DNA of 59,768 bases, from IMG/VR virus record IMGVR_UViG_3300020200_000031, positions 1 through 59,768 of that record, one strand, 5' to 3'. The position numbers and the translations under genes are program-made. A model generated the notes under the pieces. That model worked only from the letters and a program-made list of their open reading frames with translations, was not told the DNA's origin and did no database searches. Numbering within the stretch: position 1 is the stretch's first letter; every line of letters begins with the position of its first letter. Positions 4,267 through 26,849 of this stretch are shown piece after piece. The DNA comes from a virus.

Positions 4267-5583
4267 TCAGGCTGGGGCACTGTCAAACGAGACACGTACA
4301 AACGACTCTGGACGCTTGACGGCTAGCGCAAGGCGCTGCTCGGCAAGAATCACAATGGCGTTGCGGATGAAAAAGTCCGCGTGTTGCTCGCTGATTCGGA
4401 TGTTTGCCTGTTCTCGGTCGTAGAGTTGTGCACCCTGACCGAATGAACCGACAAGGGCTGTACCCTCTGGCATTGCTACCGACTCGACCAATGGCGTTCT
4501 CCACACCTTTGGCTCGCCACCAAGGGCAACCGACGTGGCAATTCGATACTGCCCGTTGGCATCCTTGTCGAGTTCGATTTGTTCCCAGTCATTCGGGTGA
4601 ATTACGACGCCCGATGGTTCGTAGTAGGCAAGCAACGACAGGGTGAGCGCACGACGGATGGCATCCGCACGTGAGTCCTTCACTGCTGTGTTGGCGCCAG
4701 TTGCGCCCGACGACCAGTTGTAGGTCTGGATTCCTGGGGTCTTCAGCACGCCGAGAAGGTTCTCGCCAGTGCCGTCGCCCAACAGAATCTGCGCATCTTC
4801 TTGCAGACGCAGACCGTACATCAGTTCGTTGTCAATGATGCCACGTAGTTGCGGCTCATCAGCAAGAACGTTGCGGTGAGCGGCTTCCCAGTGGGCCATT
4901 GTCTTGACTGAAGTCTGCGCACCCTCGAAGGTCATGCTGGACTGCGGCTTGATGCCGAATTGATTGCCAACGCGCTCCGCAACCATCGCGGCGTTGTTAA
5001 CAAAGCCGGTCTGACGGAAGAACTCAATGACCGTTGAGGTCGTTGAGCGTGCCGGGAAGAGGTCACGGACTCTCTTCGTGCGTTTTGCGGGGACAATCAT
5101 CGGGTCACGCTGCACAGTACCGAACACTGCGTTGGCGTTGTTGCCCATAGTGCCGGTTGGAAGCGTGGTGTACACGTCCTTAACTTCGATGGTGCCGTGG
5201 TATTGGAACGGAGCGGCCATGTTGGCGCCGTTACGTCCGTTGCCCAACGACTTGAATTCTGGGGACTGAAGGAATGCTTCACCGATGCTGCGTGTTTCAA
5301 CTTGTGTGAACTGTTGGGCCTGAGCGGCGGCTACCTGAGCAACCGACTCTTTGGCTTGTGAGCCACCCCACGACTCGACTTCATTCATTGCTTCAAGGCC
5401 ACTGATGAGTGACTTGATTTCGCGAATATCGGCCATGTTTTTGTCAAACTGAGTCTTCTGGGCGGTGGAAACAACCACTACACCATCTTCGACGCGGAAT
5501 GAATCGGCAATTGCCTTATTGTCTGACATTTTGGAACGAAGTGCGTCCTGCAGTTCGTTCAGTCTTGATGTATCTTGCGACAT
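4267..5583 (-). CDS. Major capsid protein (HK97 fold)
   Basis: This 438-residue protein has the HK97-type layout. A charged helical N-terminal region (about 1-95, including KNMADIREIKSLISGLEAM) would be the delta/scaffolding arm. A capsid core follows with PMIVPAKRTKRVRDLFPARST (about 160-180, the segment after the E-loop), AHWEAAHRNVLADEPQLRGIIDNEL (spine helix), PSGVVIHPNDWEQIELDKDANGQY, and a C-terminal DFFIRNAIVILAEQRLALAVKRPESFVRV. It would assemble into the icosahedral shell and be trimmed by the prohead protease. It contains no R-G-L-x-S-S-T motif; the likely cut is somewhere near residues 95-115. It has a long structured leader upstream and a hairpin downstream, consistent with high expression. 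Confidence 0.93.
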   Translation of the reverse strand: MSQDTSRLNELQDALRSKMSDNKAIADSFRVEDGVVVVSTAQKTQFDKNMADIREIKSLISGLEAMNEVESWGGSQAKESVAQVAAAQAQQFTQVETRSIGEAFLQSPEFKSLGNGRNGANMAAPFQYHGTIEVKDVYTTLPTGTMGNNANAVFGTVQRDPMIVPAKRTKRVRDLFPARSTTSTVIEFFRQTGFVNNAAMVAERVGNQFGIKPQSSMTFEGAQTSVKTMAHWEAAHRNVLADEPQLRGIIDNELMYGLRLQEDAQILLGDGTGENLLGVLKTPGIQTYNWSSGATGANTAVKDSRADAIRRALTLSLLAYYEPSGVVIHPNDWEQIELDKDANGQYRIATSVALGGEPKVWRTPLVESVAMPEGTALVGSFGQGAQLYDREQANIRISEQHADFFIRNAIVILAEQRLALAVKRPESFVRVSFDSAPA

Positions 5584-5728: not shown

Positions 5729-8293
5729 TTACTTTTCTGGAAAATTACGCTTGAACCATGCAAGATTGGAATCGCCGCCCCTGCCACCCCCAGATTGCTC
5801 AGACCATTTTTTAAATGCGGGTTCATCTATCGCGCGGAAAACACCATTCTCTATTTTTGCAATAACCCTTGGTGCGGCGCCTGGCGGAATGTCCATGTCC
5901 CAGATGTACATATCTTGAATTTCGTTTCTATTTAGATGATTTGTCAACCAACCGTACATTTGTTGACCTTTAACCCTTATCAGGTCGACTGGCAATTGCC
6001 GTCCACCCTGAGCATTTCGAGCAGTCAAACGTTTTTCGGCTTTTTCATAGGGCAAAAACGGAATGTGAACAACTTTTTTGTAATTTGGGTCGGCCGTTGT
6101 TTTGTACTCGTAAAGACGATAACCCGTGCCTTCGGTGACGATATCCATTCCTTCATCAGCGGCGGCAGCAACAGTTTTTGTCGCACTTTTTGCTGATTCC
6201 CGATGAACGGAAACTGAACCCTTTCCGCCGTCATAACCAATGATTCCCTGTTTTATGAAATCGGGGTCTATATGAGCGGCTTCTGAGTTGGGTGGCATGA
6301 GCCCATTTTTGACTAGATGGTCAATAAGCGTTGATTTGCCAACGGCGCCCGGGCCAACGACATGATAATGAACCCGCGTGCCAGGTTTTTTATTTCTTCG
6401 GTCTTGGCGCACTCTTTCAAGAATAATTTGTCCCATTCTTTTTGCCCCAATGCCAACGAAGTTTTTAGTGTCTGGCATTGTTGATGACCTTAGTCCCCTA
6501 TTTTCTGGGCCATATTTTGAATAGAAGTTCAAAATGCGCTGCCATTCCACGTCGGTAAGGTCGCCATCCCTCTTGAATTTTTGGGCCAACGCATATGGAA
6601 CATTGAAACTTGGCTTCGAATTGGCCCAGTCGATGAAATGAATTTTTTGTCTTTCCGGCCACGTAGATGGGCTTGATTTGGCCATTTCGGACAGACTCAT
6701 GGAATTAGTGCTTGAGCGCAGCCCTCTAGCCGCATTCGTGTCGATATCGGGGGTCTTCGGGTCGACCGGGGTCGCCTTGTTTCCCGTGAACAGAAGATTT
6801 ATTTCTTCGTCCGACAAACCAAGTTTTTTTAATTTTGCAATGGAATTTTCAACCGTTTCTTTTCTCCGGTCTGCTTGACGAATAGGGTTTCCGCGTTCAT
6901 CGCGCTGAATCATTCCATCACCACGCTTCATTGGGTTTGCTGTTGAAGAAGACAAACCGCGAGAATCCAAATCCTGCTCGTTTCTTTCCAACGCCCTTCT
7001 CAGCAATTGACTTGCTCTTTGCTTGCTCACCTTCAATTCATCAGCAATATCTTGAATCTTTCCACCATTGGCTCGTATTTCCAAAATTCTGTTATCACGG
7101 TCATCAAGTTTGCCAACATTTCGGGTCTTGGGTTGGCTCGGCGTTTTGTCGGCAATCAACCACGCATCTCCAAAAATCAGCATGGGGTGAAGATTGAGTG
7201 CCGACATCACCAGTCTGTCGGCATCGAACGCATCGATTGATGCGTCTGGTTTGTGCATTGCGTCGATGACCTCCCTTGTCACCCCAAGAACTAATGCCTG
7301 TTCGTCTCGATTTTTGCGTAACCGCAATCTGTCAAAATTTAAAATTTCTTGCGCTTTTAATACCCCGCCCTTTTTAATTTTATTTGGGGTGAACCAGTTA
7401 TTTCTAACCGGAGATGCCCATCGTGGCTTACTCGTATCAATGCTGTCTGTCTCGCTGGCGAGACCACTTCTAATAGGGGCAACCATTTCTCTCCAGGTTC
7501 CATCAAAAATAATTCCGTCATTATCCATGTCGCGCCGTTTTTTGGGGTCTAAAACACCTTCGATTTTTTGTAGCGACCGACGCAATCCTCGGCTGGATAC
7601 ATTTGGTGTTACTGCGTGACCAATCGCCCTTCCGAGACCCTTGGTTCCATAAATTTCTTCAAAAAGAGATTTTTTACGCAATTTATTCTTGGAGGAATTT
7701 TGGAGTTCCCTACGAATAATTGTCCTAATCATTCGATTTTGAGATTCTCGTTGATTTCTTCTTCCCAAAAAAGTTGTTCCTGCAAGCCTGGCGTAATCGG
7801 TGTTATTGGTGCAGGGGAGCCATACTGTTCTTCCAGTCGCTGACGGCATTCTTCTAACGCCAATACACCCGAGCATCCTGCTACGTTTTCGTGCCGACTC
7901 TATGTCTACGAAAACATCCGGGTCATTATCCCGTGGCGATATGCCTGGGATATACGATTTGACGCCACCAGAATATATTGTTGAATTTATTGGTGCCGAA
8001 ACTATCCCGCCGCCCTCAAGCGTAGCAAAGCCGCCGAGCGGTTTGGTTTCTCTTAACTTTTCCCAGCCCTTTTTTTTATTTTTGCCCTTAGCGCGTCTTT
8101 TCAGATATCTTTCATTCATTTCTTGATATGCAGATTTTTTATCGGGTTCTGCGGCATTCGAAAGTCTTTCCAATTCCTCATGGGTTTCACACGGCATCCA
8201 TTTTCCGTCCATTTTGTGCGCACCGGAGCAGCCGACCCATTGTGCAACACGCAAAGCAAAAATCTTTGAATTTGTTTCAGGTTTTGCCGTCAT
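5729..8293 (-). CDS. Polyvalent-type protein with HTH and zeta-toxin-like kinase
   Basis: This 854-residue protein carries several modules. Residues 18-33 (GCSGAHKMDGKWMPC) and about 140-165 (GCIGVRRM ... WLPC) are two copies of a GC-x-G ... PC motif. Residues 248-270 are an EF-hand-like cassette (DMDNDGIIFDGTWREM). About 393-438 is a sigma-region-4-like helix-turn-helix (IQDIADELKVSKQRASQLL). Residues 640-800 resemble zeta-toxin/UDP-sugar-kinase P-loop proteins, with Walker A GPGAVGKST and DIVTEGTGYR. R-G-L-x-S-S-T motifs occur at residues 445, 523 and 599, and the related RSGLASET at 275, so HTH and kinase lie in separate segments. It is probably a virion-borne effector precursor; kinase activity is inferred. 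Confidence 0.7.
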   Translation of the reverse strand: MTAKPETNSKIFALRVAQWVGCSGAHKMDGKWMPCETHEELERLSNAAEPDKKSAYQEMNERYLKRRAKGKNKKKGWEKLRETKPLGGFATLEGGGIVSAPINSTIYSGGVKSYIPGISPRDNDPDVFVDIESARKRSRMLGCIGVRRMPSATGRTVWLPCTNNTDYARLAGTTFLGRRNQRESQNRMIRTIIRRELQNSSKNKLRKKSLFEEIYGTKGLGRAIGHAVTPNVSSRGLRRSLQKIEGVLDPKKRRDMDNDGIIFDGTWREMVAPIRSGLASETDSIDTSKPRWASPVRNNWFTPNKIKKGGVLKAQEILNFDRLRLRKNRDEQALVLGVTREVIDAMHKPDASIDAFDADRLVMSALNLHPMLIFGDAWLIADKTPSQPKTRNVGKLDDRDNRILEIRANGGKIQDIADELKVSKQRASQLLRRALERNEQDLDSRGLSSSTANPMKRGDGMIQRDERGNPIRQADRRKETVENSIAKLKKLGLSDEEINLLFTGNKATPVDPKTPDIDTNAARGLRSSTNSMSLSEMAKSSPSTWPERQKIHFIDWANSKPSFNVPYALAQKFKRDGDLTDVEWQRILNFYSKYGPENRGLRSSTMPDTKNFVGIGAKRMGQIILERVRQDRRNKKPGTRVHYHVVGPGAVGKSTLIDHLVKNGLMPPNSEAAHIDPDFIKQGIIGYDGGKGSVSVHRESAKSATKTVAAAADEGMDIVTEGTGYRLYEYKTTADPNYKKVVHIPFLPYEKAEKRLTARNAQGGRQLPVDLIRVKGQQMYGWLTNHLNRNEIQDMYIWDMDIPPGAAPRVIAKIENGVFRAIDEPAFKKWSEQSGGGRGGDSNLAWFKRNFPEK

Positions 8294-8708: not shown

Positions 8709-11700
8709 TCACCCGTATCGTTTAATAATGTCATCGCGGCGCGCTATAAGTGTATCTGCAAGGATTTTCGCACGAGCCGGGTCGCTGACTATTGATTGAA
8801 CTGTTTTTCTGATGTCGTCATCGGTAATAGTTCCAAGTTTCTGAGTCTGCTGTTTTAACAGATTTCGGTCCATGTTTGAAAAGTCTACATTTCCGCCCCT
8901 TTTCTGAAGCGAAGTCATTTCCGTTACAGAGTTTCCAAAAGCCACTGTGCCCCCACTCCCCTTTTTGGTGCCTTGTGCCCTGTAATCCAGCGAACCGCCA
9001 ACATCGAGACGAACAGCCCTGCCGTTATTGTCGATTTTAATGTTGTCGTTTAATGGTGCATCCCAGTTTGCCAACCATGCGTCTATTACGAAACCTTTTT
9101 GGGCCTCGGCTTTATCGCCCGCTATGTGTGGCATTCTTGTTTGAATCATTCTGGAAAGCATCACTGGTTCGCCATTGTTTGTTCCCATGTTCAGGTCGGC
9201 TGCGGGAATGCCGGCAAGGTCGTATAGTTTTCCGGCCAACACTTCAGTTTCCATGCGCTCTTGTGCTTGCGCAATGGTTTCTGAAGGTTTTTTTAGTTTG
9301 GTGTAGTACTTAGTGCCATTTGGGTCAGTCAACAAAATTGCTGGATTGGAGCCAGTGTTTTGTGGCGTGCCCTTCGACCAAGCGTCTGTATTAATGGCGC
9401 TTTTGGAAATACTTGGCGCCGTTTGGGGTGTCGGCGCGGGCGTCGTTGGCGTTGAATCGTCATCAGGGTCGGGTCTCCGTGTTGATGGTCTTCGTTTGCG
9501 TCCAACACTACGCCCTGGGGTGATAGTGGCATCTGTGCGACCTCGGTCTTCACGATTCGCCCATAGATGCCATACGGCACCAATTCGCGAGCCATCGGGT
9601 GCTTTGGCTAATCTCTCGGCCTCATCTCTTGTTACTGGAATGTGGTACACGGCAACTCCAGTTCGGTTATGAATTAAGAATGGGTTTCCGACCCCCTTGT
9701 TGGAATTGGTATCAAAGCCATCAATACCAATAATTGGTGCGAAATAACCCTCTTCTTTTTGCTTGGTAAATCTATGCAAATAATCGATTGCCCCAAGAAT
9801 TCGTTTTCTTTCATTTGATGTATCGCCGGGAATCTTGTCAAGTTCTTCGAGTCTTTCAATCAATTGGCTTACAATTTGACCGCTTCTTGACGTTTCATTG
9901 GCCAAATTTGGAATTGCTTTTCTGAACTCCACCGCCAATTCGCCCGCAGATGTTGCTGCGGCACTGTCTCTTCCGCCCATGGTTTTAGTTACGTTGACAA
10001 GTTGTGTCGTTAAATTAGCCATCTTGTCGCGTTCACGTATGAGGTCATTTCGAGTTACAATATCTGCGCTTGGCGGTATCAGTACAAGCATGGAGTGTTT
10101 GTCGGTAGGTTTGCCGCCATATTGCGTCCAATGGCCGGGATAAGCAAAATATTCACCCACACCAAAGGCCCTCATCCCCTGTCCTGGGATAAATCGTGCC
10201 GCCTCATTCGTCAAGAATTGCTCGACGAAGCCTTCGCTCTCGATTTGTTGGTGCCCGGTACCCCTTATCACGGGTTGCCAACCGGCAGCAATCAACCTGC
10301 GCACCTCATCTTCGTTGACCAATGTGGGAAGGTCGGAATAACCGTTGTTCTCCCAAAGGTCGGCCAACAGTTGGTCGAATGCCTTTTCTCTTGCCTCGTC
10401 ACTAAGGGTTTTTGTGTCCTTGAGTTCACCGTCCAACTTTGCCAAAACATCGACAAAACTTGGTTTGATTTTTATTTTGCCAGTATTGTCAATAGACACC
10501 GTTGAGGTCTCGGCCTTAATTCGACCTATATCTGCGGCCAATTCATCTGCGTCTCGTGTACGACGGAACTTAGACAACATTTTTCGCTTCATTGCACGAG
10601 TACGAAGGCGCGTTTGTTTTATTTTAAGAGCAGGGTCTTCGATGGTGAGGATACGACCCTTTCTAAACCCACCCTTTCGACGCTCCGCTCTTTGTCGCGC
10701 CCTGGCCGCACGTGCTGGGTTAACTCGTAGTAATCTTTTTCCGAGGGCCTGTTTTTTCTTTTTACCGGTTTCTTCAGGATTCAATTCACCCACGCTCGCG
10801 GCCCTTTCAAGACCGCCTGCTTGTTTGAAAATTGATGAATCTTGCCCAGGGTTTGAAAACTTTTTAGTTGCTGGGGTGCCTACTGCTTTGGAGATTTTTT
10901 TTCTTGTGCCGGTATGGAAATGTTCCAACAAAGAAAAATCATCATTTTCTTCCATGTTTAACATCGTGACTAAATCTTCAAGAAATCTTTGAATCCTACC
11001 CGACTCACTCAATTGTGGTCGCCCCAGTTTGTCGAGTACGTACTCGCCGGTTTCCGCATTTATTTGAAATTTGTTGACTTTGCCTGAAACGATGTTTTCG
11101 TCGAGCATTTGCATCATCTCTCGAGCGTCGTTTTTTGTTAGTGGGTCATCAAACGGCCTGACCTTCTGTCGTCCGCCGGTTCCCCAGGCGCGTTGTTTCA
11201 CGGCCCGCAAAGATTCTTTATCAAGACCCTCTTCGGTTGCTTTTTGCCACCATTTTTTGTATGGTCCTGTTTTAAGGTATTTGACTATTTCGGCTTTTTC
11301 GGCAGCAATTGCTTCTTTGGTTTTTGTTCGGTCTTCTTCGGACATGGATTCCCAAAGGACCCCATCACCGTCTTGTTTTTTTACACCGCCGTTTTTCAGA
11401 ATCTGACTGAAATATATATTTCTCCTGGGTTTGGGTTTTGATTTTTCTACTTCAGTTCTTGTTTCTGGAAGCGTTGTGGTTGACCCCAAGCCTCTTGGTC
11501 GACTGGCGCGTTCGGTTGTGGCTGTCGCAATTCGACTCGATGTTGGTTGGGTTACAGGGCGACGTCGTGGCGATGATGTAGATGAACTCAAACTACGCTG
11601 TTTTAGTGCCTCGTTTCTAAGGTCCATTATTGCGATGCGGTCATCTTCGTCATCAATGCGTGTTATATCGAGGTTGTCAACCATGTTCAAAATCGAATTA

Positions 11701-14021
11701 ATTTCGTCTTTTGATAATTTCTCGCCTCGTTTGAGTTTTGCAATGGCGTTAACTGCGTCATCGAGGTCACTGCCCAAATCTGGGTCATCTGTTTCGGACC
11801 TCAAGCCTCGCCCTGCTTTTTCCTCAGGTTTTGTGCGTTTGATGGTCTTTTGTGCTCTTTCCAATATTTTTTTAAATTCTTCACGTTGTTTTTTGTTTTC
11901 TTCAAGAATTTGAAGCGACTCGGAACCTATTGGCTTATTTGGGTCTGTAGATGAAGACAGGCCACGTCGTTTTTTGCCAGCCAGGGCCCGCCTCAGGAAA
12001 GAGGGGGTCGGTTTTTGTTTAGGCGAGGAAACATCCTCAATAAGTCTCTGTATTCGCCTGTCATTGTAAAAGAGGTCGTTGTTGTCCGCAACGTCGTTCA
12101 ATGATTCCAAAAGCGACGCCCGCTCTTTGTCCGAAAGGGGTTTATCGGCAGCGAATTTTTCCAGATTTCTCGCAAACTCAGGTTCGGCGGTGCCGCGCAT
12201 AGCGTCTCGCAATTCCTTGATGATGTTTTGGCGGTCATCATCGCCGGCAGATGAAGACATTCGTTTGACATCGTCAATTAACTCCGCCAACCTGTCATCG
12301 TTTTGGAACGTTTCGTTGTTCTCGGCCATGTCCTGAAGGGTTTCAAGTAGTTCAGATTGTTCGTCGCCAGAAACCGACATACCTTTGGCGATTTTTCGTA
12401 GGGCTCTTTGAAGTTCCGGTTCTTGCGCACCCTCGGCCATTTGGGTGATGTCATCAATCAGGCCACCGAATCGCGTGGCCCGTCCTCGACCGTCTAGGTA
12501 TTTTTGTCTATCTTTTGATGTTTCGCCCAATTTACCCAGAGCAGACGCAACGGTTGCCTCCAATGCGTTCACCCTGCTTGATTTGTTTCCGTCGGGGTCA
12601 AATGCGGCAATTACCTTTACGGGGTTGACATCCCGACCGGAGGCGACTCCGTTTATGTATTCGGATAAAGCATTGAGTACGTCGGACGGATACCTTTCGG
12701 TCTCGTCTTTCGCCAAATCGGAGGCCACGCCATCAACCAAGTTCTTTATCAACTTCTGTCTATTTTTGGGGTCTGCTTTCTTGAAATCATCCTGTTGCGA
12801 TAGTGCCGACAATTTTGCCGTCACCGTTGAAACCAGGTTGCCGGAATTCGACCAATCGGCGCCATCTGCTTCCCACGCCTTCCTAAGTCCACTGTCCCAG
12901 TCAGCACCGCCCGCGTTGACGGAATCCATGAAGCCAATAGCGTCTACAATGCTTTGCCTGGTGCTTGACTCCAGTCCGCGTGGTTTCTTTTTGTCAACAA
13001 ATGAGGTTCTTGAGCGGTTGGCATAATCTCGTTTTTCTAATTCCTCGATTTCTTTCTCGTCTCCGGGCGTTCTGATTCCATAGCCACCGCCACGATTTGG
13101 AAGATTCATTCCCCCATCACGACGGGCCGCGAATCTTGTTGGGTCTGGCATTTCCCGCCACGTGCCATCGAAAATCATTCCGTCGCCATCAACGTCTCTT
13201 CTTAAACGTGGGTCTAGAACACCAGAAATTACCCGTGTTGCCCTTGACAAAGTATGTCGGCGTCTTCCACCGGGCAATCCAGGCCTGCCCGACGGCACAA
13301 GTGCTCGACCGGTTCTTCCTATTGCGTAGCCCAAGCGACTCTTAACAAAAAAATCCACAATTTCTTTGGTGTTTTTACCAATTTCATCGCGTTTAACTAA
13401 CGGGAGATTTTGTTTTACAAGAATATCTTTATTGATTATTTTTACAATTTCTCCACCAAATTTACGTTCATGACCTTTTGACATTTTTTGCTGTATTGCA
13501 TAACGTTCCGCCATTTGAGATGCGCGATTGGGCTTAGGATTAAATTGTTTGGTTTCATAATTAAACGCTAATTCATTTGTCCGAACCCTGAATCCAATTT
13601 CGCTCCTTATTGCCGATTGCCGAAAATGTTTGGCCTTGTAAGAAATAGCAGTTTTTTTCTTGTTTTGTGATGAAGGAATTTTTTTATTGGTAACCGTAGG
13701 ATATTTGGAGATATTGGGATACCTGATTGATTTCACCAAAAGTTGACAATTGTTCTGTGTTGCCAAAGAACCATTGACGGCCGCAATGTCTAGGCTTCCA
13801 ATAATTATTTTCTTCATCATTCCGTCAGACAAATTTTTAAATTCACCTACAGAAATTCCGACCGGCAAATCAGACAGTCCCAGATTATTTTGATTGGCCC
13901 ATTCTGACCATTCCACACCTTTATCGCTCCAACCGTAAAATTGATTGGAATCATCAGACCTAACAACTATGCCAAAATTGATGCCTCGATGGACATTTTT
14001 AAGTATTGCGTATTTTTTCAT
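8709..14021 (-). CDS. Giant polyvalent protein with ART-like and HipA/PI3K-like kinase domains
   Basis: This 1770-residue protein has an EF-hand-like cassette (DVDGDGMIFDGTWREM) at about 270-292. A long, charged, repetitive middle follows. Near residues 1250-1300 are VIRGTGH and GVGEYFAYPGHWTQYG, resembling the active-site regions of ADP-ribosyltransferases. The C-terminal 230 residues (NWDAPLNDN near 1650; VRLDVGGSLDYRAQG near 1670) look like a HipA or phosphatidylinositol-kinase-like phosphotransferase. R-G-L-x-S-S-T motifs sit at residues 348, 686, 738, 809 and 843, so the ART and kinase domains would leave together as a fragment of about 920 residues. Catalytic activity is inferred from motifs only. 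Its start follows the upstream stop (TAATAATG), implying coupled translation. Confidence 0.65.
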   Translation of the reverse strand: MKKYAILKNVHRGINFGIVVRSDDSNQFYGWSDKGVEWSEWANQNNLGLSDLPVGISVGEFKNLSDGMMKKIIIGSLDIAAVNGSLATQNNCQLLVKSIRYPNISKYPTVTNKKIPSSQNKKKTAISYKAKHFRQSAIRSEIGFRVRTNELAFNYETKQFNPKPNRASQMAERYAIQQKMSKGHERKFGGEIVKIINKDILVKQNLPLVKRDEIGKNTKEIVDFFVKSRLGYAIGRTGRALVPSGRPGLPGGRRRHTLSRATRVISGVLDPRLRRDVDGDGMIFDGTWREMPDPTRFAARRDGGMNLPNRGGGYGIRTPGDEKEIEELEKRDYANRSRTSFVDKKKPRGLESSTRQSIVDAIGFMDSVNAGGADWDSGLRKAWEADGADWSNSGNLVSTVTAKLSALSQQDDFKKADPKNRQKLIKNLVDGVASDLAKDETERYPSDVLNALSEYINGVASGRDVNPVKVIAAFDPDGNKSSRVNALEATVASALGKLGETSKDRQKYLDGRGRATRFGGLIDDITQMAEGAQEPELQRALRKIAKGMSVSGDEQSELLETLQDMAENNETFQNDDRLAELIDDVKRMSSSAGDDDRQNIIKELRDAMRGTAEPEFARNLEKFAADKPLSDKERASLLESLNDVADNNDLFYNDRRIQRLIEDVSSPKQKPTPSFLRRALAGKKRRGLSSSTDPNKPIGSESLQILEENKKQREEFKKILERAQKTIKRTKPEEKAGRGLRSETDDPDLGSDLDDAVNAIAKLKRGEKLSKDEINSILNMVDNLDITRIDDEDDRIAIMDLRNEALKQRSLSSSTSSPRRRPVTQPTSSRIATATTERASRPRGLGSTTTLPETRTEVEKSKPKPRRNIYFSQILKNGGVKKQDGDGVLWESMSEEDRTKTKEAIAAEKAEIVKYLKTGPYKKWWQKATEEGLDKESLRAVKQRAWGTGGRQKVRPFDDPLTKNDAREMMQMLDENIVSGKVNKFQINAETGEYVLDKLGRPQLSESGRIQRFLEDLVTMLNMEENDDFSLLEHFHTGTRKKISKAVGTPATKKFSNPGQDSSIFKQAGGLERAASVGELNPEETGKKKKQALGKRLLRVNPARAARARQRAERRKGGFRKGRILTIEDPALKIKQTRLRTRAMKRKMLSKFRRTRDADELAADIGRIKAETSTVSIDNTGKIKIKPSFVDVLAKLDGELKDTKTLSDEAREKAFDQLLADLWENNGYSDLPTLVNEDEVRRLIAAGWQPVIRGTGHQQIESEGFVEQFLTNEAARFIPGQGMRAFGVGEYFAYPGHWTQYGGKPTDKHSMLVLIPPSADIVTRNDLIRERDKMANLTTQLVNVTKTMGGRDSAAATSAGELAVEFRKAIPNLANETSRSGQIVSQLIERLEELDKIPGDTSNERKRILGAIDYLHRFTKQKEEGYFAPIIGIDGFDTNSNKGVGNPFLIHNRTGVAVYHIPVTRDEAERLAKAPDGSRIGAVWHLWANREDRGRTDATITPGRSVGRKRRPSTRRPDPDDDSTPTTPAPTPQTAPSISKSAINTDAWSKGTPQNTGSNPAILLTDPNGTKYYTKLKKPSETIAQAQERMETEVLAGKLYDLAGIPAADLNMGTNNGEPVMLSRMIQTRMPHIAGDKAEAQKGFVIDAWLANWDAPLNDNIKIDNNGRAVRLDVGGSLDYRAQGTKKGSGGTVAFGNSVTEMTSLQKRGGNVDFSNMDRNLLKQQTQKLGTITDDDIRKTVQSIVSDPARAKILADTLIARRDDIIKRYG

Positions 14022-14023: not shown

Positions 14024-16087
14024 TTAACCGCTAACTACTTTGCTGATTGCTTCATTGCTCGCAATGAGTTGTTGTAATCTATTTTCATAGAGTTTTCCGA
14101 GAATATTTAAATGGATTTTTTCTCCAGAGGACAATCTGCTATCGTTGTAAAGTTTTGTTTTAAAATTATTAAAACTGAATTCCCTGGCGCGTTTAATAAG
14201 TGTAGCAATAAATTGCAAAGTCAGGCCGCGTTGGGTAGCGCGAAGTTTCTCGAAATACTGTTTGTAAAGTTGTAATTGAGAAACAGTAAGAAGTTTTTCG
14301 ATGTTCTCTTCGGTTCTTTGTGTAATTAAAATTTTTGACAACTCGATTAAGCCAGCGCCGTCATTTGACGTCGGAACAATTTTAATTTTGTTATTAATGT
14401 TCGCAATGTCGACAGAGCCAGGATTTCTATTTTGAACATCTGTTAACAGGTCGGAAACAAAAAGTCTTGCGGTTTCCTGCCAGGGTGCGTTGCGAAATGT
14501 CAGATTATCGTCAATTTTTCCACCACGTGAAACTATTGTTGAATCTTCTGTTAGGTATCGACGAGAGTCTCCCGCGCCAACAAACAACACATTTGGGGAT
14601 TTTAAACCTAGGTGTTGCTGTATTTCGGAAACAAATCTTTGGGAAAGGGCTTCAAATTTTTTGGGGTTTGATTTTTCAATATATTTGTCGCCATTTGGTA
14701 GGGAAACCATAGTTCGTGAGTCGGAAATTTTTTCGCGTTTTATGTTGTTTGCCTTTGCCATAGCCTGCTGCAAAATCTCGGGCGAAATTTCAACAAGAGA
14801 ACCGCCGCGTGTGATATGTGCAATGGCACTTGTCAGCGTCGTGATGTCGTCACCCAACGGAGCCGAGGATGGGCTAATTGGCGCTTTTTCCGTTGCTACT
14901 TCTTCAACGGCTTTTGGCACTGGTTTAACTTTTCGTTTACTAAAGGCCATTGTCGCCCATTTTTGGCGGCCGTCTTTTACAATTTCATTTGGATTTTTAA
15001 TCCCGACAAATTTTTCGGAATACTTTATTCCCTCGCCGGTTTCCATCGCAACCATTTTTAGACGAGCCGCAGGGTCTGAGGTGTTACTAGATTCGATTGC
15101 CGTGTTAACGGTTCGACCCAGTTTTCTTCTTTCCCCAATCGTAAGTGGACGAACTTTTTCCAGAGTTAGTTCATGGCCACCGGGGAGAACATACTTAAGA
15201 CGAATGATTCCGGTATTTGATAGTAAACCAAGTTCGTCTTTACCAATAAGGTCAGGGCTAAGCACGCTCATTATGTATGTTGCGCCCTCCATGTCCCTGC
15301 TGTCGGGAATTGTTCTTAAGACTGAGGCGGGTACGACCGGCTCCAAGACAAACCCGTCTTTACGAACCATGCGAGCCACTGATTGGTCAGTCGCACTAAG
15401 TGGCTTGACTAGTTTTTGAATTTCTGCCATTGCTTTTGCCGGATTGGCGAGCGAAACCCGCGGAATCTGTGGCGCCCTTGAAACGTCTGCCGAGAGCGGC
15501 ATTTGGCCCGCCCCAAGAGTCGTGCTGGCAATATTTCCCGATGGCATTTCTCTTGCGATTGTTCGACGAATCAATGAAATTGCGGCACCCAATGGCCCGG
15601 CAATAATGAACAACTTTTGTCCGCACGTTGAAAACTTATTATCCGTAAAACGTCCACCGTATTGAAAGCCCTCTGGGCATCGCGAGACACCGTCACCCGC
15701 GCCACGTCTCATGCCCGGAACGCCCGGAATGCCCGGAGTCAGCAACCTGGTCACCGATGAGCGGATTGGGCTTCGCACTATGCTCAGGTTTCCCGGAGTA
15801 AGAGTTGACCCGACCGCCTGAACTGCCTGAAGTACTGGATTGTTGCTACTTACAAGGCCGATTCGTTTAAATTCAAATTCGCGGTTTCGACCAGACCTTT
15901 TGATAAGGGCTTTATAGGAAATAAGTTGTGGGCTTGTCGCCCCAAAATTTTTCATAATCTGGGTTGGACTTTGGCCGTTGTTTATGAAGACGGTTCGAAT
16001 TTTTTTGATTTCCGTCGATGGGCAGCAAAGGCTCTTGTTTGTTAGTTGCTTGACTTCCGAAATTATAAATTTGTTTTTCATGGTCAT
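14024..16087 (-). CDS. Large phage protein with degenerate kinase-like C-terminus
   Basis: This protein of about 687 residues has a basic N-terminal region, then a two-cysteine motif (RCPEGF ... RFTDNKFSTC, about 133-154) that recurs in the 3206-residue giant, and a segment of hydrophobic and charged repeats. The C-terminal 230 residues (LPNGDKYIEKSNPKKF ... LFVSDLLTDVQNRNPGSVD) resemble the HipA/PI3K-like fold of its downstream neighbour but with weaker active-site matches, so it may be an inactive paralogue. Unlike the other giants it has no R-G-L-x-S-S-T motif. I chose the ATG at 16087, which makes an ATGA overlap with the upstream stop. Function unknown. Confidence 0.55.
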   Translation of the reverse strand: MTMKNKFIISEVKQLTNKSLCCPSTEIKKIRTVFINNGQSPTQIMKNFGATSPQLISYKALIKRSGRNREFEFKRIGLVSSNNPVLQAVQAVGSTLTPGNLSIVRSPIRSSVTRLLTPGIPGVPGMRRGAGDGVSRCPEGFQYGGRFTDNKFSTCGQKLFIIAGPLGAAISLIRRTIAREMPSGNIASTTLGAGQMPLSADVSRAPQIPRVSLANPAKAMAEIQKLVKPLSATDQSVARMVRKDGFVLEPVVPASVLRTIPDSRDMEGATYIMSVLSPDLIGKDELGLLSNTGIIRLKYVLPGGHELTLEKVRPLTIGERRKLGRTVNTAIESSNTSDPAARLKMVAMETGEGIKYSEKFVGIKNPNEIVKDGRQKWATMAFSKRKVKPVPKAVEEVATEKAPISPSSAPLGDDITTLTSAIAHITRGGSLVEISPEILQQAMAKANNIKREKISDSRTMVSLPNGDKYIEKSNPKKFEALSQRFVSEIQQHLGLKSPNVLFVGAGDSRRYLTEDSTIVSRGGKIDDNLTFRNAPWQETARLFVSDLLTDVQNRNPGSVDIANINNKIKIVPTSNDGAGLIELSKILITQRTEENIEKLLTVSQLQLYKQYFEKLRATQRGLTLQFIATLIKRAREFSFNNFKTKLYNDSRLSSGEKIHLNILGKLYENRLQQLIASNEAISKVVSG

Positions 16088-16743
16088 CCGCAACACTTTA
16101 CGCCAACGTAGGGGGTCACGACCGGCAACCCGAGATTGTCGGTACCCTCAATTTCCCAGTTGTTGTTGTCGTTCAAATACGAAACAAAATCTTTTTCAGC
16201 GTCGATAAATTCCTGCAAAACCTTCACGGCGTGTGTCATGTCGCCGGCGGTAACAATATTTAATTCTTCGCTTTTCTCGCGCCAAGAATCTTCCGAGAAA
16301 AATTCGTCCTTGTTTTGGGCGAATTCATCGCTTTTGCCAAGAGGTGTACCTTTCCCGACAGCCCGGGCAAGCCTTCCTGGCGCCCGAATGGCCCTGCTCA
16401 GTCTTTTGCCAAATTCAGCATTGGACCAATTTCTTTTCTTGAGTTTCCCCTTGCAATTCTTCATCCCCGGATGGTGGCAGCCCTCGTTGGGCCACAATCC
16501 GGTCGTTTCGTGGTGGAGCCACGCACAGATGTTGTTGAGTGGGTACAGTTCCGGATGGTTTGCCAAGATGATTCGGCACCTACGAAAACCCCCCGGTAGC
16601 CGCATGATAGGACGCCAATATCGCAGGAGCCTCTCGAGGTTGCCTCGTCTCGGCCCGTAACCGCGAAGGATGTCTCCCGTAATTCTTTCTTGCGGCAAAT
16701 CAAAAATGACATCTTGCGGCGCCTTGAAATAAAACTCATCCAT
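16084..16743 (-). CDS. Hypothetical Cys/His-containing phage protein
   Basis: This is about 219 residues when started at the ATG at 16743; an earlier in-frame start at 16809 would overlap the upstream gene by 74 bases. The middle has CRIILANHPEL, CAWLHHETTGLW and EGCHHPGMKNCKGK, a cluster of Cys and His that could hold a metal ion. The N-terminus is basic and aromatic (FYFKAPQDVIFDL) and the C-terminus has two Cys (VKCCG). No family was recognised. It overlaps both neighbours by a few bases, so it belongs to the same operon as the giants. Confidence 0.55.
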   Translation of the reverse strand: MDEFYFKAPQDVIFDLPQERITGDILRGYGPRRGNLERLLRYWRPIMRLPGGFRRCRIILANHPELYPLNNICAWLHHETTGLWPNEGCHHPGMKNCKGKLKKRNWSNAEFGKRLSRAIRAPGRLARAVGKGTPLGKSDEFAQNKDEFFSEDSWREKSEELNIVTAGDMTHAVKVLQEFIDAEKDFVSYLNDNNNWEIEGTDNLGLPVVTPYVGVKCCG

Positions 16744-17200
16744 CTTTGGATTTTTTCTTTCTTTTTCCCTTTTTAAATTTTTGTCCAGGGGCTTCAATCC
16801 AATTTGCAATCATTTTTTGAGACCATTGACCGGTATTTTTTGCAAGAACGAAATCCATCGCCCTGTTTTCGAATTCCAAAGACTTTGCCTGTCTTTGTAA
16901 AACATCCTTGACAATTATCGCACCGGTCAAAAGTTCTTCACGAATCGGCAAGGATTTACTTACAAAAACAGAATACCAGTGAATATTTGTTTTAGACTGA
17001 TGACCGTTCCATAGGTAATCATGGAATTTAGTATTAAGAATTTTTTGCATTTGGGGATGGCTGTCAACATATTCCCAAAAACCTTCCACACTTATATCTC
17101 CCACCTTGTTTTTAACAACACAATCGGCATCAGGACAAATTGAATCGACAATAAAATATATTTTATTACTATCAGATTTTCCCACAAGTATTGACTTCAT
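16736..17200 (-). CDS. Hypothetical protein with basic tail
   Basis: This 154-residue protein has a beta-rich N-terminus (KIYFIVDSICPDADCVV), a central tryptophan- and histidine-containing region, and a strongly basic C-terminus (KFKKGKRKKKSKDG) that could contact DNA. It starts with an ATGA overlap on the stop of the 3206-residue giant and overlaps the next gene by 8 bases, so it is translationally linked to both. No family was recognised. Confidence 0.55.
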   Translation of the reverse strand: MKSILVGKSDSNKIYFIVDSICPDADCVVKNKVGDISVEGFWEYVDSHPQMQKILNTKFHDYLWNGHQSKTNIHWYSVFVSKSLPIREELLTGAIIVKDVLQRQAKSLEFENRAMDFVLAKNTGQWSQKMIANWIEAPGQKFKKGKRKKKSKDG

Positions 17201-20200
17201 GCCCGTACAAACTCTTTGCGCTCATCTTGGTTTTGACTAATTCGTCGCGCGCGTCTACGGCCAATTTTATCAGATTTCTTATTTTTGGCCAATAATGGCA
17301 TTATTGCAAAAGCCAAAACAATTGGGTCTAAATCTTCTAGATTTATAGAATTCTTCACATTGGCAGATTTGATATTTAGCCCAAGTTTTTCAATTAAGGG
17401 TAAAAGAGTTTCTCGGGAAATTTCTGCCGGTAATTGCCAGTTATGTGGCATAACTTGCTCTATAGGCTTTCCGCTTACGTCATGTGTCCGGCTCATTCTG
17501 GCTCCCTCTGTCCTAATATCTGGCGCCCTGGAAAATAAAAACCAAGAAGCGAATGCCTCGGCCAATCCTTCTGTCGCTTTTGAGGCGGCATAACGAGTGG
17601 CCGCTATACGCTTCTCTATTTCCTCCGCCCGCAATGCTGAATGAAATATTTCGTCAGGGTCTCCACCCAGGTTTATCGTTTGACCCTTGCTGATTAAGCG
17701 TTTTAATAAATGTCCCATTAGCGACGGCATCCTTATTTTTGATGCGCTTTTATCTCTTACGCTGAAATCGAGTAAATGGCCGAATTCATGAATCATTGAA
17801 CCGTAGGCAATCCTTCCTGCGATTTGGCCAGTCAATTCTTCTAATTTATTTGGGTCATCATATGAGACATCATATTTTGGCAATCCCAATTTGCCAAACG
17901 CTACCGGTGTTGAACCCCCGGGGGCCAAAATTTGAACTTCCCCCCGCGCCCCAAAAGTCCCTCGACGGGGTTGATAGTGTTGACCCCAGTTCAGGGAAAC
18001 AATTTGTCTTGCGGCATCTTTAATTTCGGCGGCATTTATATCAATACGCGTTTTGTGTTTGTTGCCTTCTTTAAATCTTTGCGCTCTAAAAAATTTTACT
18101 CGAGGACCAAAGGTGCCAAAAACGCTGGTTGGTACAAAAATTTCACTGCGCCCTTCAATCCCACCATCTGTAATATTTACTGAAAAATTGTTGTCTTTTA
18201 GAAGTAGTTTCATTCCCGGTACATTCGAAAGTAGGTCATCTAGGGCCTGCACGGCTGCATAGCCCGCGAAATTGGTTGCCAACGGTCTTCCGTTTTTGTC
18301 TTTTTCTTTAAATAATGATTTAGACATCTCCACATCTATTCCATAGGTTTTTTTGAAATATTTTCGGACCTGTTTTGGCGAATAGCCAAATTTTTTCTTA
18401 AGATTTTCTGGCGCTTCAACCCTGGGAATGCCTAATTCGTCTCGTCCGTGTGGCAACTCAAGGGGTCCTTGGTCTAATTTTTCCGCGCTGCTTCTATCGC
18501 CAGGTTTGAAATTTTCCCCAAACCACGAATCTGTTGACGTGCTGCTTGCCAATCCCCTTGTACCGCTTGCCGATTTTTGCAATGATTTTTTTGGCTTTAG
18601 GTCATCAATTTCTTTGTTTGAAGCAACACTCATATTGTTGTCAGACAAAAGTTTTCTTATTGTTTCTGCCCCCGCCCAACCGATGACATCAACAAGTTCA
18701 TGCTCTTCCGATAAACCGCTGATTTTCATAGAATTCGGATACATGCCACGACTTTCCCAGTCAAGTCCTTCGTGATTCAAAAATGTAACTTTGGGTCGCT
18801 CTTCAGGACTTTCTGCAATCAGTTCCCGAATTCTTTGCCGTTCGCTTAGGCGTCCGATTAGACGTGCCCTGGCAGAAATTTCGTCGCGTAACTCTTTAAT
18901 CAATTTTTCGGAATATTGATTGTCCTTATTTTCAATAATTTTTTGCAATAGGCTAAGTTCTGATTTTGATAAATATTTTCCAAAAAAATCTTCTATGATT
19001 TTCTCATCAACTTTTCTGGTGTCGCGCTGACCGGGGTGTATCGCATCACCATCATTTTTCATATGTCGCCTTTGAAACTCAGGTTCAATACGGATTTCTT
19101 CTACGTCATTCATATCAAATCCGCCCGCCACTATTGCTTCGATGTAGAAGCGATAATCCTTATCAATGCTTGTGAGGTGTGCAAAATCGTTTGAAACACT
19201 TGCTTCTAAAAGATTTATAAATCTTTGTTGTTCAGAATCGGGAATATGCGCGTGCGTGGTTCGAAACCGGGCTAGGTATCTATTTAATATTGCCGCCTCG
19301 AGCAATTCGTCATCGGTTGCCGAACCATCGAGGCTGACGGGTGTTCGCATGCCACTAAAAGAATCACCAAAAGTCACCAACGAACGTTGTGCAGTTTCCG
19401 GTTTTAAGATTATTTCAGAGTGCCCATATTGCCTTGGAAGCGAATCGACAAGTTTCCCTTCAAAAGAATTTGGGTCGTCGATTCTCTTGTCGCCAACGCT
19501 GTCTTCGTCGCCAATAGCAATTATTTCGAGCAAATTTGGGACACTCTCTTCGATTTCTTTGATTTTTTCTGACTGTTGTTTCGCGCGGTTTTTTAGGTGT
19601 CTTTCATTAAATTTCTGTTCGTCAGGATGTTTCAAAAATCCGTGCGCGGGTCTAATCGTATTGCGCGCCTTTGAAGGGATACCCAAAAGTAATTCAATGT
19701 CTTTTCTGTCAGCGGATTCAGATGATGCCGTACTTTGTCCTCCGAACTGTCCTAATTGTCGGGGGTCATGTGTTGTCTTCCATTTTTTATCTTTTATAAA
19801 GCGGTATAATGGTGATTCGTCCGGTGAATCTCCTATCCCTTCATCTGAGATTCCGCGAATTCTAAATATTGGACGTTTATCTAATCCGTCTATATATTTT
19901 CTTACCGAATTAGCCGCAATCTTTTTAATTTCTTCTGGAGAATTGTTTCGAAGAAGTTCTAAAACTTCTGGGCTCACAGGCCTGCCGTAATTCCATTCCT
20001 CTACAATTTCGCCCGTTTTTGCTTTATCGATTGTCTTATTAATTACTTCATTGAATCGAACCTTCGCTTCTTCGTGACTCTCATATCTGGCATCATCCGG
20101 AGTAACAACACCGAAAGGGTTGTTTCTTTTTTCGACCCAATCTTTGCGTTTTTTTTGCTTCTCAGCCAATGCTTCCCCACTTGGTTTCCCAAATTTAATT

Positions 20201-23200
20201 CCCAAATACTCATAATCTCCTTTAATGCGTCGATTTTTTGGTGTTATTTCACTAGGAATAGACGTCACGTCTACCGTGGTCGTAGAAGACGCAAGACCAC
20301 CTCGACTAGATGTCGCAAGGTTTTGTGGGCCAGACGTTACAAGGTCTCGTGCAAAATCAACAACATTGTTCCTTTCGCGTTCGTTGAGGTTCCCGAAATC
20401 GATTTCGCCCATCCCACCCAAAAGGGCGCTGTTGCGAATCGCTTGCAAAACGTCTTTGGAGTAAGACTGACTCGTATCCGTACGTTTGGCCACCGGTTTT
20501 TTGGCGATACCAAAATATTCAGTAAACTCGTTGGCCAATCTAATGATTTGCGAGATAGGAGCGTCTACCACTCTTACATTCATTTCGTGATTATTGCCCA
20601 ATATGCCGTCCTTGAAATCAAGACCTAATTGGGCGGCCCACCTGTGGTGTCCATCAATTACGTAGCCATCTCGTGAAATAAATATTGGTTTTTCGCCGGG
20701 CTTAAATGTTCCAGCCTTAGCGCTGGCCATCATGCCCGCAACACCACGGCCCTGCATGTCTCTTTGTGTTGCTTTTAACTTGTCTGACTGGACATATTGA
20801 GGGTCCGATATTTCGAGTCCCCGTTCTTTCAAAAATTTAACAAATTCTGCGTTTGCATCGACTTCGTCTTTGGCCTTTCCTCCTTTGGCAAGTCGCTCGG
20901 CGTTTTGTTTTTCGAGCAGTTTTTCCGCAAGACTGCCCGCCCTGACTTTACCCTCTGCCTGAGGCATCAAATATCGAGGTATACCTTTGTTCCCCAAACA
21001 AAATGCGCTTACTCCCCGAACCGTGACCTGACACAAATCAAAAACGAAATTGTCCAACGTTTCTTTGTCTATCTGGCCTTCTGCAACCATTTTCTCCAAG
21101 GCAACAACCATCCTTGCAAAATCGTCAATTAATGTATGCGCCCCCTCAATGTCTGGCATGTCCACATCGTGACCATCAAGAAGCGCCATAACCGCATCTT
21201 CGACAGTGTCAACTTTAATCAACTGTCTTGGCGCCTGTGGGTGAATTTTTAATTCTCTTAAATAATCTTCCCAATCTTCGTCCACTATCATCAAAGCATC
21301 GGGTAATGGCACCCACCTCAAACCACCATCTGGCTCTTCGGAAACTATTCCCCTGGGTTCGATGTGCGTCGACGATGCAAGCCCTCTTTCGCTTTGGCGA
21401 AAAGTGGGATTGATTCGTTTGAGTTCTTCATCGACCATAGAAATGAAATTAATTTTATTTTTGGCTTTGTCTGAGGAATCGTTGTCCGGATGGTCAAAAG
21501 GAATAGGATTTTCACCTTTTTCAACTCTTATTTTTTGATATCGAAGCAGTGCTTCGTACGGTGTTGTTTTTTCGTTCGCGATGAGGTCTTCCGGAGTCAC
21601 GTCCGACCATTTCCCTGAAGAAATTTTATTTTCAACGTATTTTTGGGTCATTGATGTGTTGAAGGGTTCCACTTCATCAAGGTCGAAGAATCGCGGGTCA
21701 TCAATAATTACGTCTATCCCGTGTTTCGCCGATACATCATCTCGTTGCCGAGCAGCCGCAATCAGGTTCGTAAAACTTGTTCGTGGATTTATGCCAAGCA
21801 TGGATATTTCTGCAGGCGCCCAAATGTGGTCCCCGCGCAAATCGAATGATTCCGAAACGATTGACTCCACGTCAGACAAATCAAAACTGCCCAACGTAAG
21901 AGATTCGACATATCGCTTCCTTTGGTTGTAGAGGGCACTAGCAATGGTGTCTTTCCTGCCGGTTTTATTTTCAAACAGTACGGCTAGGGGTTGAAAAAAC
22001 ATCGCCGCCAGGGAGCCGTCTTCCGACAGCCTGGAAAGACGGGCGCCTGCTTCCAGTACATCGCCACCACCGGTATAGGTTTGGTCGCTGGCGGTGTCGC
22101 CGCTTACCGCAAGCGTTCTCTGTGCGACTTCTGGCCTTAAAACAATCGAATTTCTGCCGTACTGGTCGCCAACTTTTGAAGATTTGTTGCCGACGCCCGT
22201 TTGGGCTGCATCCCTCCCCTTTCGACCGACAGACGGTGCGTCGTGCTGTATTTCAACATCATCACCATAGATGGAGCGCAATCTTTGTATTCTTTCGCTG
22301 CTTGGCCCTTTTTGTAGGGCCTGCCCAGATGACGGCCTGAGCGACGTTGTTTTTGAGTCTGTATCTACCGGAAACCGCATCAACTGATTTTCGACAGTCC
22401 TTCTAATTGCGGGAACATCCAAACCCCTATTTGCGAACGGGTCTCCACCCTGTGTTTTTCTGCCCGAATGCACGGTTTCATATCTGCCATTCTCAATCAA
22501 TCCGCGCGTGTCCCCCATCATGACGATTGGCCGACTATCAAATGGGCTTTCAAAATTCGCCGCAGCATCTTTGACCGCTGAATTGTATTGTTCGGGCGTC
22601 ATCGACTGAATTTCTTGGATGAAATTGTCTATTTGGGAAACAAGTTCTTTGTCGCCCCTTTCTTCGGCCACGAGTCGCATAACCTCAAGCCTCAAACCAA
22701 AAGAATCCTTATTGTCAAAATCCCTCAATTCCCTCAAGATGTCCTGGTCCGACTTGCCTAAATCTTTTGCGTAACCTCGCACTGTTTGTTTCTGATAATC
22801 ATTTAATTTGGGAGCAATCTCTATGTTTTGAAGATATTCATGACTTCTTGGTGACAGTCTGGCGGTTTCGCGTTCGCCTATTACGCGCGGAAGTATTTCT
22901 CTTTCTTGTCTGTCCAAATCGACACCAATGTCTTCGGCCCTTGCGAGAATATCTACGTTTTTTTGACGGGTAAATTCGCCGTGTATCGCTTTATTGATTT
23001 CGTCAACCGTGCTGGAGGCTAAGCCGCGACTGCGCGGCAATTCTTTGTCAGGATTGTAAGTCCGAGGAATTTTTTCAAGTTCTAAAATCAAATCATCTGG
23101 TCTATTTGCTGCTCCGGCATCTCTGACTTTTCCGTAGGAAACGTTTTCAAATTCCCTGGTAGTTCCGTTACGGTAGGAAACTTTCAACGTTTGGGTCTGG

Positions 23201-26817: not shown

Positions 26818-26849
26818 TCTGGGCACCTTTTCTTAACTAAAAAACACAA

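What the first reader, a model, noticed from the sequence alone, without database searches (positions are those of the whole stretch)
8709..10300. ART-like and HipA/PI3K-like domains at the end of the 1770-residue protein
VIRGTGH and GVGEYFAYPG resemble the NAD-binding core of ADP-ribosyltransferases, and NWDAPLNDN with VRLDVGGSLDYRAQG resembles the catalytic and metal loops of HipA or PI3K-like kinases. All five R-G-L motifs lie upstream of them, so they would be released as one two-enzyme fragment. The neighbouring 687-residue protein has a weaker copy of the kinase-like part without any R-G-L motif.
Basis: partly seen in the sequence, partly recalled or inferred. Interest (0 to 1): 0.55.

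Follow-up and report, generated by a model that had tools for sequence, protein, structure and literature searches.

The report
Phage head polyprotein with kinase tail
A phage seems to pack a giant protein into its head that is probably cut at repeated short sites, freeing a C-terminal piece that carries a protein-kinase fold and, less certainly, an ADP-ribosylating enzyme to act on the host bacterium.

Summary
Residues 1544-1770 are a kinase fold: AlphaFold2 pLDDT 94, best match the HipA-like kinase CtkA (Z 16.5, 211 of 240 residues), catalytic residues kept across 63 sequences. The ART half is unproven: Pfam and the fold searches showed no ART, and the model's core is poor; R-G and G-x-G-E-Y are invariant in the family. 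More distant kinase relatives often carry true ART domains on the same chain. The five R-(G/S)-L-x-S-x-T motifs lie upstream of one conserved block ('mid' domain, ART-like domain, kinase). In 15 orthologous sequences 0 of 83 such sites fall inside or after that block (31.7 expected). Each phage lineage uses its own version of the motif across several head-operon proteins, with unconstrained codons; 12 of 14 relatives' S78 prohead proteases bear their lineage's version, as the window's does. Best reading: a head-packaged polyvalent polyprotein whose ~928-residue C-terminal piece is freed during head maturation and injected. Cutting, packaging and activities are inferred. The 690-aa neighbour resembles only the kinase N-lobe and lacks conserved active-site residues. 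New variant of a known kind.

The parts
8709..14021 (-). 1770-aa head-operon polyprotein
   Evidence: ORF; lies between S78 protease and major capsid genes
8712..11492 (-). predicted released C-terminal fragment, about residues 844-1770 (mid + ART-like + kinase)
   Evidence: last motif at residue 843; 0 of 83 sites at or after the start of this block in 15 orthologous sequences; exact cut position inferred
10509..11375 (-). conserved 'mid' domain, residues 883-1171, function unknown
   Evidence: own HMM matches 16 of 16 orthologous sequences
9552..10334 (-). ART-like domain, residues ~1230-1490
   Evidence: invariant R-G-x-G, R-F-x-P-G-x-G, G-x-G-E-Y, G-x-D, H-N-R columns in 11 sequences; fold search inconclusive
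10251..10271 (-). VIRGTGH (Arg1253 = candidate strand-1 Arg; role recalled)
10134..10163 (-). GVGEYFAYPG (candidate G-x-G-x-Y strand of an ART; role recalled)
9393..9551 (-). Pro/basic-rich linker between ART-like and kinase domains, no motif copy
8712..9392 (-). HipA/CtkA-like kinase domain, residues 1544-1770
   Evidence: AlphaFold2 pLDDT 94.3, pTM 0.91; CtkA Z 16.5; 508 of 525 candidate viral stretches encode relatives
9297..9299 (-). Lys1575 (ATP-binding Lys by analogy)
   Evidence: at least 90% conserved in 63 sequences
9243..9245 (-). Glu1593 (helix-C Glu by analogy)
   Evidence: at least 90% conserved in 63 sequences
9060..9062 (-). Asp1654 (catalytic Asp by analogy)
   Evidence: at least 90% conserved in 63 sequences
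9042..9044 (-). Asn1660 (metal-binding Asn by analogy)
   Evidence: invariant in 63 sequences
9003..9005 (-). Asp1673 (metal-binding Asp of DVGG by analogy)
   Evidence: invariant in 63 sequences
12960..12980 (-). candidate cleavage site RGLESST (348)
11946..11966 (-). candidate cleavage site RGLSSST (686)
11790..11810 (-). candidate cleavage site RGLRSET (738)
11577..11597 (-). candidate cleavage site RSLSSST (809)
11475..11495 (-). candidate cleavage site RGLGSTT (843), last before the enzyme block
28360..31944 (-). 1194-aa protein: S78 prohead protease (residues 28-172) with extension bearing RGLSSDT, RGLPSST, RGLSSST
   Evidence: PF04586 E 3e-10, phrog_80
17197..26826 (-). 3209-aa companion polyprotein with RGLASS(T/A)/GGLASST sites
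5729..8293 (-). 854-aa companion: two DUF3721 stretches, HTH, Zeta-toxin-like kinase (629-772), sites at 276, 445, 523, 599
14024..16096 (-). 690-aa neighbour; C-terminal part (14027-14809) distantly like the kinase N-lobe
   Evidence: hhalign prob 86.5%, E 4.6e-6, 57 columns; active-site positions vary
4267..5583 (-). major capsid protein (HK97-type)
   Evidence: PF05065 E 9.7e-42
32012..34033 (-). portal protein
   Evidence: PF04860 E 5e-50

Best explanation
The 1770-aa protein is a head-packaged polyvalent polyprotein. It is made with the capsid proteins and enters the prohead. It is cut at its R-G-L-x-S-S-T-type linker sites, most likely by the phage's own S78 prohead protease, so that a C-terminal piece of about 928 residues (mid domain + ART-like domain + HipA/CtkA-like kinase) stays as one unit. 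That piece leaves the head with the DNA, phosphorylates host proteins and, if the ART-like domain is active, ADP-ribosylates them, to favour takeover. Shown here: the kinase fold (predicted) and its conserved catalytic residues, position between portal/protease and capsid genes, the pattern of motif placement, and the conserved block. Inferred: cutting, which protease cuts, packaging, injection, both activities and the targets.
For: Kinase model pLDDT 94.3; CtkA Z 16.5 over 211 residues, CotH 14.2, HipT 11.1, HipA 10.8; catalytic residues conserved in 63 sequences. Portal, S78 protease and capsid genes flank the polyproteins; kinase relatives in Forza, Phendrix and DSL-LC01 also sit between portal and capsid genes. 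On the same chain as the kinase: PF03496 ART in 2 of 6 kinase-bearing proteins (L005, Dolphis gp117) and in 10 of 27 (two proteins are in both calls), PF01129 ART in 3 of 27, MuF head domain in 4 of 27. Motif: 0 of 83 sites within or after the mid/ART/kinase block, 31.7 expected; at least one motif form enriched over shuffles in each of 18 records, differing by lineage; the orthologous last site carries the local form in most lineages; 12 of 14 relatives' complete S78 protease frames carry their own lineage's form, 1-8 copies against 0.01-0.10 expected; codon choice at the sites is near background, so the constraint is on amino acids.
Against: No direct proof of cleavage, packaging or injection. 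In the capsid protein TRSIGEAF, its probable maturation region, is the same in the window, L001, L003, L004, L012, L013 and L016, whose linker motifs differ, so one protease with co-evolving specificity is not shown. Two of 14 protease frames (G008 and the 508-aa frame of G013) lack their lineage's motif. Motif forms are not exclusive: GLRS, for instance, occurs 3-4 times in several lineages with another main form, and I chose the forms after seeing the sequences. ART not supported by Pfam or folds. Four of 6 kinase-bearing proteins hit no ART at E up to 0.01. In Dolphis, ST4 and phiT5282EW the kinase gene is not beside annotated head genes in the stretches read. The 15 sequences are related (L018-L021 nearly one lineage), so the 83 sites are not independent.
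Confidence: 0.62

Rival explanations
1. Only the kinase is an enzyme; the 'ART-like' region is a non-catalytic, partly helical domain whose R-G and G-x-G-E-Y motifs mimic an ART.
For: No ART family in Pfam for any of 14 members at E up to 1; no ART among the 50 rows shown in either PDB look, best VIA Z 6.5 over helices; no usable profile link to R-S-E ARTs of relatives; a strand-5 catalytic acid is not apparent (H-N-R instead).
Against: Motif order and invariance; the domain also occurs as the last domain of kinase-less orthologues (L133, L134, L137, L138), as an effector would; ARTs accompany the kinase in relatives.
Confidence: 0.35
2. The repeated R-G-L-x-S-S-T element is a docking or spacer motif (for scaffold, portal or partner proteins), not a cleavage site.
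For: The capsid region TRSIGEAF does not change with it; no cut product is known.
Against: Sites stay out of domains and are carried by the protease itself in the window and in 12 of 14 relatives; variation by lineage in many copies at once fits a protease site, though a docking groove could do the same.
Confidence: 0.25
3. Cutting is done by the zincin-like HExxH segments of the 3209-aa protein, as proposed for other polyvalent proteins, not by S78.
For: HEVTH at 663 and HEFGH at 3013 of the 3209-aa protein; precedent in PMC5512222 section 8.
Against: Only motif strings were seen; Pfam reported no metallopeptidase for it at E up to 5. The motif is also in the S78 proteins.
Confidence: 0.15
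4. The kinase acts late inside the producing cell (for example superinfection immunity), as suggested for HipA-like kinases of gut phages, and is not injected.
For: Position among head genes; PMC8008677 argues this for a kinase between portal and capsid genes (passages).
Against: Fusion to MuF head domains and ARTs in relatives and the processing-like motifs fit packaging better.
Confidence: 0.12

Closest known systems
Polyvalent proteins of phages and conjugative elements (Iyer et al. 2017, PMC5512222; abstract, sections 8-10 and passages read)
   Same: Very large multidomain protein, disparate enzyme domains, head-gene context, ARTs and kinases among the reported parts, processing proposed
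   Different: The reported kinases are truncated Ser/Thr/Tyr kinases said to lack the C-terminal subdomain, and the ARTs are of an H-Y-D type; here the kinase is HipA/CtkA-like and the ART-like domain starts with Arg; lineage-specific linker motifs are not described in the sections and passages read
CtkA (HipA-like kinase of Helicobacter pylori) and HipA/HipT kinases
   Same: Fold; Lys/Glu/Asp/Asn/Asp set (by analogy)
   Different: 9-16% identity in the aligned rows; part of a phage polyprotein; below Pfam cut-offs
HipA-family kinases between portal and capsid genes of 'Gratiaviridae' (PMC8008677; passages read)
   Same: HipA-like kinase in the same genomic slot
   Different: No ART, fused polyprotein or linker motif told in the passages read; late role proposed there
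Protease-processed head and ejected proteins of SPN3US (PMC10052503; passages read)
   Same: Prohead protease cuts head proteins, some several times
   Different: Mostly N-terminal propeptides removed; here one chain would be cut between many modules
Phage T4 Alt (as told in PMC5512222)
   Same: Head-packaged, injected host-modifying ART
   Different: R-S-E ART; no kinase or linker-motif polyprotein told there

Membership tests
HipA/CtkA-like protein kinase | Bilobal HipA/CtkA-like kinase fold | tested here: met
   predicted model, Z 16.5 to CtkA, 14.2 CotH, 10.8 HipA
HipA/CtkA-like protein kinase | Lys, Glu, catalytic Asp, Asn, metal Asp | tested here: met
   1575, 1593, 1654, 1660, 1673, conserved in 63 sequences; roles assigned by analogy (recalled)
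HipA/CtkA-like protein kinase | Pfam HipA_C above cut-off | tested here: not met
   Window domain has no HipA hit; 13 of 63 sequences hit HipA_C, best E 0.0014
HipA/CtkA-like protein kinase | Protein kinase activity | not testable with these tools
   needs assay
ADP-ribosyltransferase superfamily | ART fold | tested here: inconclusive
   Model mean pLDDT 69, core worse; no ART in the listed PDB rows, one ART-labelled viral row at E 0.5
ADP-ribosyltransferase superfamily | Profile match to a known ART family | tested here: not met
   0 of 14 members in Pfam at E up to 1; hhalign to R-S-E ARTs prob 0.1%
ADP-ribosyltransferase superfamily | Active-site triad (R-S-E or H-Y-E/D) | tested here: inconclusive
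   Invariant R-G and G-x-G-E-Y; no clear strand-5 acid
Polyvalent protein | Several unrelated effector domains in one large polypeptide of a head operon | tested here: met
   second enzyme ART-like only
Polyvalent protein | Delivered into the host with the DNA | not testable with these tools
   needs virion proteomics or infection
Prohead-protease substrate | Cleavage at a defined motif during head maturation | not testable with these tools
   motif distribution only

The most novel reading that the evidence does not exclude
A whole injectable toolkit is made as a few polyproteins and cut at about 17 sites by one prohead protease into many effectors, and the cleavage site is rewritten in concert across the copies, the protease's own included, in each phage lineage: a cleaved phage polyprotein logic like that of RNA viruses, with a joint ART-kinase warhead.
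Probability: 0.45. Interest if true: 0.78.

Novelty: new variant of a known kind. Interest (0 to 1): 0.55.

Why it matters
If right, dsDNA phages deliver sets of host-modifying enzymes by cutting polyproteins in the head, and the linker motif becomes a tool to read effector boundaries directly from sequence. The kinase domain is common (508 of 525 candidate stretches in one viral scan). In the 19 GenBank phage records hit by tblastn the matched genes are called hypothetical or ADP-ribosyltransferase, in no listed row a kinase. It thus offers a testable class of possibly injected phage kinases, often paired with ARTs.

Tried and rejected
ART fold: the AlphaFold2 model of residues 1170-1540 was good only in a helical insert; Foldseek PDB gave no E below 0.001 and no ART in 50 rows, VIA-align none in 50 rows, BFVD best E 0.011 to an unnamed protein, with an ART-PolyVal-like protein at rank 4, E 0.5, too weak to use. 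This absence does not exclude an ART.

ART relatives: a single-sequence viral scan found none; alignment scans found 14 of 105 and 21 of 68 candidate stretches; genome contigs 0 of 135; tblastn in phages one hit at E 4. Profile comparisons with the Phendrix ART-like region and R-S-E ARTs failed.

DNA-level repeat homogenisation as cause of the motif: rejected, because codons at the 11 full R-G-L-x-S-(S/T)-T sites are about as diverse as background.

A capsid cut site that changes with the motif: not seen among near lineages. A resemblance of TR/SIGEAF to the HK97 capsid cut is recalled only.

Protease check: a first look scanned one strand of cut loci and found a motif in few; it was mended by fetching whole regions and reading both strands: 12 of 14. 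Only the confidence of the best explanation was changed for this (0.60 to 0.62). One search also read only the + strand of relatives' loci, so some protease copies are missing from its counts.

Literature: searches listed no paper whose title or abstract start describes this motif behaviour; I did not read beyond the passages and sections named. PMC9503650 and PMC7824862 were seen as passages only.

Dropped before counts: one search kept 62 relatives after removing more than 90% alike ones, short matches, loci L006-L011 and L088 onward; searches count 15 of the 16 sequences (L027 left out); the helical-module boundaries were cut by hand between sites, so its 6 of 83 (39.0 expected) is partly circular; one search leaves the modules out. 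Overlapping motif forms are counted twice in places (L143, L152).

Full report
What is there. The window is an IMG/VR virus record of 59,768 bases. On its minus strand, in order of transcription, lie a portal protein (32012-34033), a 1194-aa S78 prohead protease with a long extension, then 459-, 3209-, 154-, 241-, 690-, 1770-, 132- and 854-aa proteins, and the HK97-type capsid protein (4267-5583). In the rows listed, the nearest capsid relatives are in Brevibacterium phage Cantare (46%) and Gordonia phages (44-45%; 12 of 977 records shown) and the nearest protease relatives in Gordonia phages (39-43%; 8 of 285 shown). An actinobacterial host is likely but inferred.

The observation. The four quoted strings are at the stated place. 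The five upstream motifs are four R-G-L and one R-S-L. In the window G-L-x-S-x-T occurs 16 times against 0.2 by shuffling. The sites, leaving out RGIVSEE, are 17 in four proteins: 3 in the protease, 5 in the 3209-, 5 in the 1770- and 4 in the 854-aa protein.

The kinase. A viral scan with the profile gave 508 relatives among 525 candidate stretches, 80 kept. From 63 sequences AlphaFold2 gave pLDDT 94.3 and pTM 0.91. Foldseek put RIO2 (E 1.2e-5) first, then CtkA (3.5e-5, TM 0.60), PI4K and VPS34; VIA-align put CtkA first (Z 16.5, 3.7 A, 211 residues), then CotH 14.2, HipT 11.1, LepB 10.8, HipA 10.8. Pfam HipA_C is hit weakly by 13 of 63 members, HipA_2 by 4. Asp1647, Asn1660 and Asp1673 are invariant; Lys1575, Glu1593 and Asp1654 are 90% or more conserved. 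So 'HipA- or PI3K-like' was a good call, CtkA being nearest.

The ART-like half. The family has invariant R-G-x-G, R-F-x-P-G-x-G, G-x-G-E-Y, G-x-D and H-N-R columns in 11 sequences. More distant ones keep R-G-x-G, R-F-x-P and G-x-G-E-Y. Neither Pfam, PDB sequences nor folds support an ART. The model was poor where it mattered. I hold the ART assignment at about 60%. The domain is separable: of 21 contigs, the kinase is seen in the same protein for 17 and not in L133, L134, L137 and L138, whose proteins end soon after the ART-like domain (L133 and L137 look like one virus).

Kinase and ART keep company. In L005 one chain holds MuF, two kinase copies and a PF03496 ART; Dolphis gp117 holds the kinase and PF03496; four other kinase-bearing proteins scanned with them (L009, L010, L034, L058) hit no family at E up to 0.01. 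Of 27 kinase-bearing proteins (L034 and L058 again among them), 10 hit PF03496, 3 PF01129, 4 MuF, 7 WGR and 2 NUDIX; the overlap between the two ART models is not told.

One fragment. In 15 orthologous sequences (window included) the mid domain, ART-like domain and (in 12) kinase follow each other with no linker motif inside or after them: 0 of 83 sites, 31.7 expected. The last site lies 19-48 residues before mid in 13 of 15 (101 and 99 in L133 and L134, where the mid HMM match starts late). The C-terminal piece, counted from the first residue of the last site, measures 867-978 residues with the kinase and 572-611 without. Upstream are repeated ~70-residue modules with sites near their ends.

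Concerted motif. Each lineage has its own main form: R-G-L-x-S-S-T here, G-L-x-S-x-T in G001/G002, (T/S)-L-R-S-x-G or L-R-S-S-G in G003/G005/G006, R-G-A-x-S in G004, L-T-S-G in G008, G-L-x-S-x-R in G009-G012, G-M-S-S in G013, G-L-R-S in G016, (S)-G-L-R-S in G017, G-M-R-S in L133/L134/L138 (18 records; forms picked). The forms are not exclusive; GLRS in particular recurs in several lineages. At the last, orthologous site most lineages show their own form, for example RGLGSTT, RGTTLRSSG, RGARSAS, RGMRSR. Codon identity among copies is near background. The S78 protease frames of 12 of 14 relatives carry their lineage's form. This is what a shared protease specificity, with self-processing, would produce. 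Against it, the capsid stretch TRSIGEAF does not vary with the motif among seven near relatives, the window included, and two protease frames lack the motif.

The 690-aa neighbour. Profile comparison gives 15% probability with 5 sequences and 86.5% (E 4.6e-6) with 9, over 57 N-lobe columns. The Lys and metal-Asp positions, placed by eye, are not kept, so it may be a degenerate kinase or unrelated.

Mechanism. By analogy with injected head proteins (T4 Alt; SPN3US, PMC10052503 passages) and polyvalent proteins (PMC5512222), the polyprotein is packaged, cut, and its C-terminal kinase/ART-like piece injected. PMC8008677 (passages) proposed a late role for a HipA-like kinase in the same slot; fusions to MuF and ARTs favour injection here.

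Verdict. A new variant of a known kind (polyvalent, head-packaged effectors), with a firm kinase fold, a probable but unproven ART, and a striking processing-like motif system.

Noticed in passing
24826-24840 and 17776-17790: HEVTH and HEFGH zincin-like motifs at residues 663 and 3013 of the 3209-aa protein; may be metallopeptidases of polyvalent type.
   Followed up: partly
20641-20655: DGHHR at residue 2058 of the 3209-aa protein, as in Forza gp78 and Phendrix gp66; region 1990-2122 matches phrog_2859, E 1.6e-13. Possibly ParB-like.
   Followed up: partly
5729-8293: 854-aa protein: two DUF3721 stretches, sigma70-r4-like HTH and a Zeta-toxin-like kinase, with R-G-L sites at 445, 523 and 599 between HTH and Zeta domains: another likely effector set.
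   Followed up: partly
12021-12467 (1770-aa residues 519-667) and L002 protein residues 1243-1430: Tandem ~70-residue modules with linker sites near their ends, up to five per protein; phrog_30463 matches residues 598-679 weakly, E 0.0017.
   Followed up: partly
1770-aa residue 267 and 854-aa residue 246: Shared segment GVLDP..RRD.D.DG.IFDGTWREM upstream of the first motif site; the 1194-aa protein has a BLAST-similar stretch at 434-494. Could be a packaging tag.
   Followed up: no
L005 8076-9677: Two kinase domains in tandem in one MuF-kinase-kinase-ART protein; the second reads GNTEVGGYGEN where the first has NWDVVGLGYDN, and may be inactive.
   Followed up: no
L102 (G004): The protease frame of this record is reported with one in-frame TAG; error or readthrough not examined.
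   Followed up: no
window 5583-28360: About 23 kb of polyprotein genes lie between the protease and capsid genes, while in Gordonia phage Chidiebere the two tblastn matches lie about 1 kb apart.
   Followed up: no
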